DNA from: Accumulibacter sp.
Lineage (GTDB): Bacteria; Pseudomonadota; Gammaproteobacteria; Burkholderiales; Rhodocyclaceae
Assembly (NCBI GenBank): GCA_031266435.1
Contig: JAISAZ010000086.1
Span: forward strand, 1-64,000
Direction: 5' to 3'
Length of the DNA: 64,000 nucleotides
Below, piece after piece: positions 40,376 through 44,288 of the stretch; position 1 is the first letter of the stretch, and each line of letters opens with the position of its first letter. The notes beneath the pieces were generated by a model. It ran no database searches and was not told the origin of the DNA. It worked only from the letters and a program-made list of their open reading frames with translations. Made by a program: the position numbers and the translations under genes.

Positions 40376-40413
40376 AAGTCCTCCGAATGAACGAAATAGG
40401 TTTTACTTCAAGC

Positions 40414-40444
40414 AAGCGAAATTTTTTCCTAAAAAATTTCGCTT
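40414..40444. terminator. perfect 14-bp hairpin AAGCGAAATTTTTT-CCT-AAAAAATTTCGCTT
   Basis: Exact inverted repeat 40414-40427 / 40431-40444; symmetrical A/T tracts could act in both directions. Confidence 0.7.
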
Positions 40445-40490
40445 TCCGCGCCAGATACCTTTACCTTCCCACTTTTGCCGGGGGAAAATC

Positions 40491-41369
40491 ATGGCTTTGT
40501 CACTTGCAAAATGGTGCGCGAAATACGCGGAGATCGTCACGACACGGGGCCTGATGCCCGCGACCGCGCAAGAAAAAATCTCGCACGCGCAGGGCCTGCT
40601 CGCGGGAATCGGTGATAAGGCGCTCAAGAAAATCCGGCCTGTCCACGTCGCGCGTGCGATCCACGCTGTCTGGGCGGGTGGGCACCCCGCGAAGGCGCGG
40701 CGCATGCTCTCGGTCGCGCGCGACCTGTTTACCGAGGCGGTGATCAACGGCTATGTCAATGCCAATCCCGCCGCGCCGATCCGGCCGCTCCCGAACCGCG
40801 TCCGGCGCGCGCGGCTTTCGCTCGACCACTGGCGGCTCACGCAAGCCACCCTTGAAACCGAAGCGCTTCCGTGGCGGCGGCTGTTTGCGATTTTGGCGCT
40901 CGTCACCGGCCAGCGGCGCGGCGACCTGCTCAAAATGCGGTTTGACCACGTCTGGGACAAGCACCTGCATATCGTCCAAGAGAAAACCGGCGAGCGGATC
41001 GCACTCCCGCTCTCGCTCCGGCTTCGCGCGGTCGATACGAGTTTGCGCGAGATCATCGCACGGTGCCGCGACTACGGGCCTCCGGGAGACACGCTGATCC
41101 GAAAAAACAATACTGGCGACCCGCTCACGCGCTCATCCTTGACGAAGGCGTTCTCAGCAGCGTTCCGCCGCGCGGTCGTCTGGGAGCGGGAGGATCGAAA
41201 GCCGCCGAGCTTGCAGGAGTGCCGCTCGCTCGCCGAGCGGCTTTACAGCGCGCAAGGGATCGACACGCAAATCCTCCTCGGCCACCGCCGCGCGCAGACA
41301 ACCGCGCTCTACCACGACGACCGGGGCCTCGACCGCGAAGCGGGCGTCTGGCGAACTTTGAAAATTTAA
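40491..41369 (+). CDS. lambda-Int-like tyrosine recombinase without the arm-binding domain; candidate shufflon recombinase
   Basis: VTGQRRGDLLKMRFDHV (R), VQEKTGERIALP (K), PPSLQECRSLAERLY (box II R), LLGHRR (H), TTALYHDDRG (Y). Starts at a point that aligns with lambda Int residue ~65. Confidence 0.93.
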   Translation: MALSLAKWCAKYAEIVTTRGLMPATAQEKISHAQGLLAGIGDKALKKIRPVHVARAIHAVWAGGHPAKARRMLSVARDLFTEAVINGYVNANPAAPIRPLPNRVRRARLSLDHWRLTQATLETEALPWRRLFAILALVTGQRRGDLLKMRFDHVWDKHLHIVQEKTGERIALPLSLRLRAVDTSLREIIARCRDYGPPGDTLIRKNNTGDPLTRSSLTKAFSAAFRRAVVWEREDRKPPSLQECRSLAERLYSAQGIDTQILLGHRRAQTTALYHDDRGLDREAGVWRTLKI

Positions 41370-41370
41370 G

Positions 41371-41688
41371 CCCGATCATCGAGGGGAGTTTGAACGCCTC
41401 TGGGATAACTCGGCCGGGGTCGACGTAGGGCGGGAGATTGGGACGTTCCAGGAGGACGCGATTCGGAATATCACGGGACATATCTATGCCGGAAAACTCT
41501 ATGAATATTTGTTTAGTGTTAGTGGCGTATTTTCTACATACGCAGATGGAACAGTGGAACCGCTGGGGCATAACTCTAATAAGCAGTCGTGTTATCAAAT
41601 GCTGAGCTTCGATGCTTCGCGCGTCGTTCCAGTTGCGTCCGAGAACCGCCCGCGCAGTGTAGCAGTCCTCGCTTGCATCAAATATTAG
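41371..41688 (+). other. silent tail-fibre C-terminal cassette C1
   Basis: Frame from CCC: PDHRGEFERLWDNSAGVDVGREIGTFQEDAIRNITG...FDASRVVPVASENRPRSVAVLACIKY*; starts 1 nt after the recombinase stop. Confidence 0.93.
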
Positions 41689-42021
41689 CCCGATCATCGG
41701 GGAGAGTTTTTACGGATGTGGGATAGTGGTGCGGGCGTCGATATTGGGCGGGAAATCGGGAGTTTTCAGATTGACCAGATGCGAAAAATAACGGGGGCCG
41801 TGTCCGCGATAGGTTTTCGGGCGGATGTAGATACGAGCCATCCTGATATCGCCAATGGTATGTTTAGACGCGCGGCTTTCAGCGATTGGGGTGCGTACAA
41901 CCCACAATCTACCGGCACACACGCTACCCTTATTGCGGACTCGTCTCTTCTCGGCGCCAACTACGACGGCACGGATACCCACGGGCGCAACGTTTCCGTC
42001 CTCGCCTGCATCAAATATTAG
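41689..42021 (+). other. silent tail-fibre C-terminal cassette C2
   Basis: PDHRGEFLRMWDSGAGVDIGREIGSFQIDQMRKITG...ANYDGTDTHGRNVSVLACIKY*; begins at the nt after the C1 stop. Confidence 0.93.
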
Positions 42022-42345
42022 CCCGATCATAGAGGTGAGTTCCCAAGGTTTTGGGATAACAGTGCCGGGATCGATGTCGGGCGCGAGATCGGGACATTCC
42101 AGGGCGACGCGATGCAGAATATCGTCGGAAGCGCCTATTTTATTCGGTTTGCGCAAGACTCTGGGAGCAACGGCAGCGGAGCGTTATATCTAAGCCTTGG
42201 CGATCACGGTTATAACGGTTTGGTTCAGAATACGTCGGCTGGAAGATTATCCGGGACCCTCACCTTCGATGCCTCGCGCGTTGTACGTACCGCCCCCGAA
42301 ACCCGCTCTCGCAACGTTTCCGTGCTCGCTTGCATCAAATATTAG
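42022..42345 (+). other. silent tail-fibre C-terminal cassette C3
   Basis: PDHRGEFPRFWDNSAGIDVGREIGTFQGDAMQNIVG...FDASRVVRTAPETRSRNVSVLACIKY*. Confidence 0.93.
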
Positions 42346-42651
42346 CCCGATCATCGGGGAGAGTTTTTACGGATGTGGGATAGCGGCGCTGGCATTGATG
42401 TTGGAAGGGAAATCGGGACGTGGCAACAAGACGCGATAAGGAATATAACGGGATACCTTTATACAATTTCGTATGGGCTTAGTACGTCGGGAGCATTTTC
42501 ATCGCCTTCGGGCCCGGTACCAAAAACGGCAGGGGCCAATCTAAATACATGGGTAGAGGGCGCCGCTCTTTTCGACGCTTCCCGCGTCGTTCCAGTCGCC
42601 GCCGAGAACTGTCCCCGAAGCGTCGCCGTCCTCGCCTGTATCAAATATTAG
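42346..42651 (+). other. silent tail-fibre C-terminal cassette C4
   Basis: PDHRGEFLRMWDSGAGIDVGREIGTWQQDAIRNITGYLYTISYGLSTSGAFSSPSGPVPK...VAVLACIKY*. Confidence 0.93.
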
Positions 42652-42981
42652 CCCGATCATCGGGGAGAGTTTTTACGGATGTGGGATAGCTCTGCCGGCA
42701 TCGACGTTGGGCGGGAGATCGGGACGTTCCAGATCGACCAGATGCGGAAAATAACAGGGTACGCGCTCCCAATCGGTTTCCGTGAGGATGCAGTTACGAA
42801 TATTCCGTCTCTTGTCGGTGGTATGTTTCAACGCGTAGCGGCAGATTGGGGCGCGTACATTACGAATGGAAATGGTTCGCGTGCGTGTCTTGACGCGGAT
42901 TCGTCCCGCCTCGGCGCCAACTACGACGGCACGGATACCCACGGCAGGAACATCGCCGTCCTCGCGTGCATCAAATATTAG
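42652..42981 (+). other. silent tail-fibre C-terminal cassette C5
   Basis: PDHRGEFLRMWDSSAGIDVGREIGTFQIDQMRKITG...ANYDGTDTHGRNIAVLACIKY*. Confidence 0.93.
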
Positions 42982-43239
42982 CCCGATCAGCGTGGCGAAT
43001 TCGTACGTTCGTGGGATAACAACGCCGGCATTGACATAGGCCGCGAAATCGGCTCGTGGCAAGGGGATGAGCTAAAATCGCATTATCACTTAATTACGGC
43101 CGGCGGAATGAGCGCGCTTACGGCGGGAAGCGTAGTTTCTATGACCCCCGTTTATTCTGGGGGCACAAGCACCCAATACACCGGCGGCGTCGAGACGCGC
43201 GGCCGGAATATCGCGCTCCTCGCATGCATTAAATATTGA
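42982..43239 (+). other. silent tail-fibre C-terminal cassette C6 (shortest, most divergent)
   Basis: PDQRGEFVRSWDNNAGIDIGREIGSWQGDELKSHYHLI...GGVETRGRNIALLACIKY*. Confidence 0.9.
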
Positions 43240-43244
43240 TGCAA

Positions 43245-43550
43245 TCAGTATTTTATACAGGCGAGCACGGCGACGTTACGGCCTCTGTTTTCCGCCGCCG
43301 TAGGAACGACGCGGGAAGCGTCGAAAAGAGCGGATCCCTCTACCCATGCATTTAGATTGCCCCCTGCCGTTTTTGGTACCGGGCCCGAAGGCGATGAAAA
43401 TGCTCCTGACGTATTAAGCCCATACGAAATTGTATAAAGGTATCCCGTTATATTCCTTATCGCGTCCTCTTGCCACGTCCCGATCTCGCGGCCTACATCG
43501 ATCCCAGCAGAGTTATCCCAAAACCTTGGGAACTCGCCTCGATGATCGGG
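43245..43550 (-). other. silent tail-fibre C-terminal cassette C7 (inverted, near-copy of C4)
   Basis: Minus strand: PDHRGEFPRFWDNSAGIDVGREIGTWQEDAIRNITGYLYTISYGLNTSGAFSSPSGPVPKTAGGNLNAWVEGSALFDASRVVPTAAENRGRNVAVLACIKY*. Confidence 0.93.
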
Positions 43551-44288
43551 CTAATATTTGATACAGGCGAGGACGGCGACGCTTCGGGGACGGTTCTCGG
43601 CGGCGGTGGGAACGACGCGCGAGGCATCGAACTGAATACGGGTTATCCCATTTGTTTCTCCAAAAATTGTAGGCGAAGTTATTCCAGAGTCGACATAAAA
43701 TGCCCCGGACACCAGATTGTAATAGCCGCCGTGAATCGGAGGCGCCATACCAGTGATATTCCTGATCGCGTCGCCCTGAAACGACCCGATCGCCCGCCCA
43801 ACGTCAACCCCCGCACTGCTATCCCACATCCGTAAAAACTCTCCCCGATGATCGGGAATACGGAAAGTCGTCGTTCCGTTACCCGGGCTGAACTTTCCTT
43901 TGGTTGCCTCGACCCACAGAGAATCAGCACTCAGGAGGTTGCCGGAGGCCTGCGCAAACGCCCATAAATCGGGATAGGCCGTGCGCGAGAGGAGCGCGCC
44001 GTTGCGCTCAATCCAGCCCGTCGGCGGAGTAGTGCACGGAAAAGTCGCGCACATGCCTACCGGAATAAACGCCCCGTTCGCGGACGACAACATCTGAATC
44101 GCCTGCAGGAGCTGCCCCAGATTCGTTGATGCCGGGGTGAGGCCCGCCGCTGTGATCACGGCCAGGATTTCGCGCTGTGGGTGTTCGAGCGCGGCGGCCG
44201 GAACGACCGATCCTTCAACGCCGGTAGAGGGATTGCCGTCGACGTAGGACGCGTTGGCGGCAGCGCCGATGGGTTGTACATATTTCAT
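43551..44288 (-). CDS. expressed tail fibre / tail-collar protein: constant N-part (43857-44288) plus current variable cassette (43551-43856)
   Basis: GWIERNGALLSRTAYPDLWAFA..GNGTTTFRIPDHRGEFLRMWD collar motif; RPRSVAVLACIKY C-terminus; in the tail operon. Confidence 0.93.
   Translation of the reverse strand: MKYVQPIGAAANASYVDGNPSTGVEGSVVPAAALEHPQREILAVITAAGLTPASTNLGQLLQAIQMLSSANGAFIPVGMCATFPCTTPPTGWIERNGALLSRTAYPDLWAFAQASGNLLSADSLWVEATKGKFSPGNGTTTFRIPDHRGEFLRMWDSSAGVDVGRAIGSFQGDAIRNITGMAPPIHGGYYNLVSGAFYVDSGITSPTIFGETNGITRIQFDASRVVPTAAENRPRSVAVLACIKY

What the first reader, a model, noticed from the sequence alone, without database searches (positions are those of the whole stretch)
40376..44288. 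Tail-fibre shufflon: tyrosine recombinase plus seven silent C-terminal fibre cassettes in both orientations
The minus-strand fibre gene has a constant 144-aa N-part (43857-44288) and a 101-aa C-part. Next to it lie seven promoterless, start-less C-terminal modules: C1-C6 on + (41371-43239) and C7 on - (43245-43550). A divergent tyrosine recombinase follows, and the whole unit splits the fibre gene from its chaperone gene. Every module begins at the same codon phase (PDHRGEF or PDQRGEF) and ends with ACIKY plus stop. Inverting DNA between the expressed junction (43856) and the start of any + cassette would create an in-frame fibre with a new tip; recombination with C7 would instead excise the current tip. 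This matches the layout of the R64 rci shufflon but applied to a phage or tailocin receptor-binding tip. Classic phage fibre switching (Mu Gin, P1 Cin, p15B Min) uses serine invertases.
Basis: partly seen in the sequence, partly recalled or inferred. Interest (0 to 1): 0.95.

Follow-up and report, generated by a model that had tools for sequence, protein, structure and literature searches.

The report
Phage tail-tip shuffling locus
A prophage in a betaproteobacterium-like genome carries one working tail-fibre tip and seven spare tips next to a DNA-recombining enzyme that very probably flips the spares into use, so its particles could change which bacteria they attach to; the same kind of switch was described in 2018 in unrelated prophages of gut bacteria.

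Summary
Confirmed: a minus-strand collar-type fibre gene (144 aa constant + 101 aa tip), seven silent in-frame tip cassettes (six +, one -) and a tyrosine recombinase lie between the fibre and its assembly gene. All eight tip starts carry CCCGATCANNGNGGNGARTT; similarity to the expressed junction begins abruptly there. Silent cassettes have no stops (about 30 expected); silent pairs show dN/dS 0.23-0.28. The nearest relative's expressed tip is an orthologue of silent cassette C1. Inversion alone can express all eight tips. The recombinase is lambda-Int-like without the arm domain; the prophage has a separate canonical integrase. A relative (55%) sits in an equivalent array in a P2-type prophage, another beside a one-spare switch in a Mu-type prophage. 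Inversion itself was not observed: no reads or strain pairs were available. Very probably a tyrosine-recombinase fibre shufflon, but not categorically new: the Rin shufflon of Bifidobacterium and Eggerthella prophages has the same design. New here: an unrelated recombinase clade (all 22 members lack the box II histidine), its spread over different phage types in Gram-negative hosts, and a prophage in which no head genes were found.

The parts
43857..44288 (-). constant N-terminal part of the tail-collar fibre (144 aa)
   Evidence: PF07484 collar, PHROG tail fibre
43551..43856 (-). currently expressed C-terminal tip (E)
   Evidence: in frame with the constant part
43245..43550 (-). silent tip cassette C7
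   Evidence: open frame, site at 43550; ends TGA, no site after it
41371..41688 (+). silent tip cassette C1; orthologue is the expressed tip of relative P0122
41689..42021 (+). silent tip cassette C2
42022..42345 (+). silent tip cassette C3
42346..42651 (+). silent tip cassette C4 (87% aa identity to C7)
42652..42981 (+). silent tip cassette C5
42982..43239 (+). silent tip cassette C6; ends TGA, tail to tail with C7
43837..43856 (-). recombination site inside the fibre gene (core CCCGATCA)
43531..43550 (-). recombination site of C7, direct repeat of the fibre site
41371..41390 (+). recombination site of C1, directly after the recombinase stop; further + sites at 41689, 42022, 42346, 42652, 42982
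40491..41369 (+). tyrosine recombinase, lambda-Int core-binding and catalytic domains without the arm domain
   Evidence: PF22022, PF00589, PDB 1z19/1z1b
39773..40375 (-). tail fibre assembly (chaperone) gene
   Evidence: PHROG_105
40416..40442 (.). 27-bp near-palindrome between assembly gene and recombinase; possible regulatory element
   Evidence: only two copies in the genome
44285..45352 (-). Mu gp48-like baseplate gene upstream of the fibre
   Evidence: PF10076

Best explanation
The locus is a prophage tail-fibre shufflon run by a tyrosine recombinase. The recombinase acts at short asymmetric sites (invariant core CCCGATCA) embedded in the conserved PD-H/Q-RG-EF codons at the start of every tip module. 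Recombination between the site inside the fibre gene (43856) and any plus-strand site inverts the DNA between them and joins a different C-terminal tip in frame to the constant collar part; inversions using the C7 site (43550) reorder spares. All eight tips are reachable, so a population makes particles with different receptor-binding tips. Shown: anatomy, site repeats, intact and constrained silent frames, a separate integrase, related recombinases beside equivalent arrays in other phage types, and a relative expressing the orthologue of a silent tip. Inferred: that this recombinase is the enzyme, the exact crossover point, that inversion prevails over deletion, and that the tip sets the host or target range.
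For: Sites exactly at all eight module starts, 0.15 expected; similarity to the fibre-internal site starts abruptly at the core: 2/15 left, 8/8 core, 8-12/12 right; no stops in 718 silent codons, about 30 expected; dN/dS 0.23-0.28 between silent modules; nearest fibre homologue P0122 carries the C1-type tip; separate canonical integrase in the same prophage; clade relatives beside a fibre array (L179, P2-like) and a one-spare switch (L181, Mu-like); inversion-only model reaches every tip; same design has read-supported inversions in Rin prophages (PMC6109161).
Against: No reads, no rearranged strain, no experiment: inversion at this locus is unobserved. The whole clade lacks the box II His, so catalysis is assumed from conservation of the other residues. 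G927 has the recombinase without cassettes. Direct-repeat sites would also allow deletion. The prophage may be defective (no head genes found).
Confidence: 0.86

Rival explanations
1. A former shufflon, now locked: the recombinase or the prophage is inactive and the array is a remnant.
For: Box II His is replaced by Gln; no head genes were found; no rearranged copy is known.
Against: All seven silent frames are intact with dN/dS well below 1; recombinase open and its other catalytic residues conserved; His loss is shared by all 22 clade members, so it is a clade trait rather than decay.
Confidence: 0.08
2. The spare tips are exchanged by homologous recombination or gene conversion through the shared module ends, and the recombinase is a bystander.
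For: C7 is mosaic: its first 20 codons match C3, the rest C4; fibre-tip exchange by homologous recombination is known in Pectobacterium tailocins (title of PMC13195805).
Against: Similarity to the fibre-internal site stops sharply at an 8-nt core, with 2/15 matches on its left; arrays of mixed orientation beside the same recombinase clade in another phage type with a different repeat. Conversion may act in addition.
Confidence: 0.04
3. The recombinase is the integrase of the phage (or of an inserted element) and lies beside the fibre cassettes by accident.
For: It belongs to a wider arm-less lambda-Int-like family found among phage genes without cassettes.
Against: A canonical integrase with arm domain lies near the other end of the prophage; two further clade members sit at fibre arrays or switches; the k-mer test separates the array and published Rin loci from the wider family.
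Confidence: 0.02

Closest known systems
Rin shufflon of Bifidobacterium prophages (PMC6109161, 2018) and Eggerthella lenta prophages (PMC8778435, 2022)
   Same: Constant receptor-binding-protein N-part, several silent C-terminal cassettes of about 95-110 aa in both orientations, short asymmetric repeat at each cassette start, arm-less tyrosine recombinase at the array end, separate canonical integrase.
   Different: Recombinase not detectably similar by BLAST; different repeat; hosts are Actinobacteria with long-tailed phages, here Gram-negative with a contractile Mu-like tail; inversions seen in reads there, not here.
R64 shufflon (Rci, sfx sites, pilV)
   Same: Tyrosine recombinase, multiple invertible C-terminal modules, sites with conserved core and right side and variable left side (PMC11852207).
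   Different: Rci is a distant relative (30% over 111 aa) with a C-terminal extension absent here; target is a conjugative pilus adhesin.
Gin/Cin/Min fibre inversion systems of Mu, P1 and p15B
   Same: Phage tail-fibre tip switching by DNA inversion; Min has multiple segments.
   Different: They use serine recombinases; this enzyme is a tyrosine recombinase.
Lambda/HK022-type integrases
   Same: Core-binding and catalytic domains align end to end; nearest characterised relatives in the tree.
   Different: No N-terminal arm-binding domain; box II His replaced; located at a fibre array.

Membership tests
Rin-type phage receptor-binding-protein shufflon | constant fibre N-part plus several silent C-terminal cassettes in both orientations | tested here: met
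Rin-type phage receptor-binding-protein shufflon | short asymmetric repeat at every cassette start | tested here: met
   CCCGATCANNGNGGNGARTT at all eight
Rin-type phage receptor-binding-protein shufflon | arm-less tyrosine recombinase beside the array, distinct from the phage integrase | tested here: met
Rin-type phage receptor-binding-protein shufflon | recombinase homologous to Rin at family level | tested here: not met
   best BLAST alignment 25 aa, E 0.063; far apart in the tree, long branches
Rin-type phage receptor-binding-protein shufflon | observed inversions at the sites | not testable with these tools
   no reads and no near-identical copy found
R64 Rci shufflon | Rci-family recombinase with C-terminal extension | tested here: not met
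   292 aa against 384 aa; 30% over 111 aa
R64 Rci shufflon | sites with conserved core and right arm, variable left arm | tested here: met
   left 2/15, core 8/8, right 8-12/12 against the fibre site; the six left flanks that are cassette tails resemble each other
R64 Rci shufflon | inversion only, no deletion between direct sites | not testable with these tools
   needs a reconstituted assay
Gin/Cin/Min serine invertase systems | serine recombinase | tested here: not met
   PF00589 tyrosine recombinase
Lambda-type integrase | core-binding and catalytic domains with R-K-H-R-H-Y residues | tested here: inconclusive
   R142, K165, R245, H265, Y274 invariant, but box II His is Gln242 here
Lambda-type integrase | N-terminal arm-binding domain | tested here: not met
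   query residue 3 aligns to Int residue 74

The most novel reading that the evidence does not exclude
A clade of arm-less, box-II-His-less lambda-Int-like invertases, unrelated to Rin and Rci, forms with its tip cassettes a plug-in diversity module that has moved among unrelated contractile-tailed phages (P2-type, Mu-type and this one), always switching at the same protein position of the fibre; here it arms a particle without a head, a tailocin with a shuffled target range.
Probability: 0.3. Interest if true: 0.72.

Novelty: new variant of a known kind. Interest (0 to 1): 0.56.

Why it matters
It indicates that tyrosine-recombinase fibre shufflons are not confined to prophages of Actinobacteria and probably arose more than once, here from lambda-type integrases in Gram-negative contractile phages. 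It offers an eight-tip repertoire with short defined sites for testing how an arm-less recombinase favours inversion over deletion, and how a tyrosine recombinase clade works without the box II histidine. If the prophage is headless, it would be a bacteriocin-like particle with a reassortable target range.

Tried and rejected
Searched for near-identical recombinases to find rearranged copies: none in viral contigs, one 25% match in metagenome contigs, one 38% match in genome contigs. Looked for cassette arrays beside the wider arm-less family in about 80 viral loci by protein self-similarity and, in about 40, by 11-mers repeated on both strands (Rin as positive control): none at the recombinase beyond what looks like chance, so shuffling is not claimed for that wider family. 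Searched two further genera and the window's own genus for more clade members: no new ones. Tried to reach the JGI contigs of P0122 and P0006 through IMG/VR: not found. Fold search of the predicted fibre (mean pLDDT 85, tip 58-84): PDB matches to phage fibres and the T4 short-fibre receptor-binding domain are all above E 0.001, so only suggestive; viral matches are mostly collar and tail fibres. Serine-invertase, integrase, remnant and homologous-recombination readings were considered and rejected as described under rivals and membership.

Full report
OBSERVATION. The fibre gene (44288-43551, -) encodes a collar-domain protein (PF07484; PHROG tail fibre families) directly downstream of a Mu gp48-like gene (44285-45352, -). 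Next come silent cassette C7 (-), then C6 to C1 (+), the recombinase (40491-41369, +) and the tail fibre assembly gene (40375-39773, -). Every cassette is open from PD[HQ]RGEF to ACIKY-stop. A 20-nt consensus CCCGATCANNGNGGNGARTT occurs exactly at the eight module starts.

MORE THAN CHANCE. Allowing 2 mismatches, shuffles of the window give 0.15 such sites; 9 are seen. The seven silent cassettes hold 718 codons without a stop against about 30 expected from composition, while the other five frames hold 13-29 stops each. Two pairs in which both members are silent, C4/C7 and C2/C5, have dN/dS of 0.23 and 0.28 (NG86 on short, partly mosaic sequences, so approximate). Frames that are never translated would not be expected to keep this, so the spares are very probably expressed from time to time (inference). 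Divergence sits in the middle of the modules: mostly 7-30% identity there, against 61-89% in the first 36 residues.

SITES AND GEOMETRY. Compared with the site inside the fibre gene, the 15 nt to the left match only 2/15 at every cassette site, the next 8 nt (CCCGATCA) match 8/8 and the following 12 nt match 8-12/12. Strand exchange therefore fits within or beside CCCGATCA (inference). Six sites point one way, two the other. Cassettes whose tail abuts a site end TATTAG; only C6 and C7, which face each other, end in TGA and have no site between them. In an inversion-only model this tail-to-tail point is a fixed centre; the model reaches 10,080 arrangements and all eight tips, C1-C6 by one inversion and C7 by two. 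In R64, conserved core and right arm with a variable left arm are thought to limit Rci to inversion (PMC11852207); the pattern here is similar, but the effect is untested.

RECOMBINASE. It consists of the core-binding and catalytic domains of lambda integrase without the arm domain (PDB 1z19, 1z1b; query residue 3 aligns to Int residue 74). R142, K165, R245, H265 and Y274 are invariant in 48 homologues. Its closest clade (22 sequences including the window; the others are 53-64% identical to it) has Gln or Ala at the box II His in every member, whereas the wider family keeps His in the rows shown. The clade is one group in the tree (support 92/99), nested with lambda-type integrases and far from Rin and Rci, though long branches make the exact placing of those two unsure. 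The prophage encodes a separate integrase with an arm domain at 69.2-70.4 kb of the contig, so the 292-aa enzyme is not needed for integration (inference).

RELATIVES. In G1120 (L179) a clade member (55% identity) sits between a gene resembling the assembly gene (by position and by eye; no Pfam match) and an array of three + cassettes, one - cassette and the fibre gene. Its repeat (GACTTGCG) differs in sequence but falls at the equivalent D-L-R codons. That prophage is P2-like: P2 capsid, GPO, sheath and tube genes. In G1099 (L181) a clade member sits beside one inverted spare sharing 36 nt with the fibre junction; Mu-type gpT capsid and Mu portal genes lie on the same contig (L201). G927 has the recombinase and a fibre but no cassettes seen. 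Two recombinase/fibre pairs among database hits (P0006/P0130, P0022/P0170) share contig lengths of 36241 and 3876, which suggests shared contigs but was not checked. About 80 loci of the wider family show no cassette array.

EVIDENCE FOR SWITCHING. The nearest fibre homologue, P0122 (constant part 72% identical), carries as its expressed tip the orthologue of silent cassette C1 (130 bits, against 96 bits for the tip expressed here). Other homologous fibres also match silent cassettes best: C1 26, C6 20, C3 3, C7 3, C4 2, against 58 for E. This supports a repertoire exchanged between silent and expressed positions, though horizontal exchange is not excluded. No reads and no close strain were available, so inversion itself is not shown.

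WHAT IT DOES. Most likely the recombinase inverts segments so that each lineage makes fibres with one of eight tips, changing the attached host or target. That the tip is the receptor-binding part is inferred from its position and variability; the predicted structure is confident over most of the collar part (pLDDT mostly above 90) and weaker in the tip, and PDB matches to fibre tips are weak.

KNOWN SYSTEMS. [quoted passage not shown] Eggerthella lenta prophages have it too (PMC8778435). Four viral contigs holding the published rix repeats were fetched, and in two of them (L189, L191) the recombinase was identified beside sites in both orientations. The two recombinases are not detectably similar by BLAST. 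The finding is therefore a new variant of a known kind: same way of working, different recombinase lineage, different phages and hosts.

CAVEATS. Among the prophage genes tested, no portal or capsid was found: between the terminase (59101-56954) and the head-tail joining gene (55876) there is only about 1.1 kb, holding a RelE-like/HTH pair and a small unassigned ORF, and the genome has no PF05136 or PF03864 match. Other head families were not searched genome-wide. The particle may be a tailocin, a defective phage, or the product of an assembly gap. The genome is a 121-contig assembly without a name here; 'betaproteobacterium-like' rests on the names of its closest hits (Zoogloeaceae, Azoarcus, Rhodocyclus).

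Noticed in passing
40416-40442 and 55900-55926: GCGAAATTTTTTCCTAAAAAATTTCGC, a 27-bp near-palindrome, occurs exactly twice in the 2.66-Mb genome (up to 2 mismatches), both in this prophage and both just upstream of plus-strand genes (recombinase; RelE/HTH pair) that oppose the late operon: possible shared operator, terminator or insertion mark.
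   Followed up: partly
55876-59101: Terminase large subunit and a full contractile tail module are present, but no portal or capsid gene was recognised; a RelE-like/HTH toxin-antitoxin pair (55972-56671, +) sits where the head genes would be expected.
   Followed up: partly
L024-L045, L080, L107 and similar: A large family of arm-less lambda-Int-like recombinases of about 300 aa lies inside phage gene modules (in four loci looked at, among what look like structural genes) without detectable cassettes; their role is unclear.
   Followed up: partly
L180 (G927) 8363-9280: A clade recombinase near a fibre gene but separated from it by an assembly-like gene and a DNA-methylase-like gene (by eye), with no spare cassettes: lost array or a different role.
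   Followed up: no
43245-43550 against 42022-42345 and 42346-42651: C7 is mosaic: its first 20 codons follow C3 and the rest follows C4, pointing to gene conversion or homologous exchange between modules in addition to inversion.
   Followed up: partly
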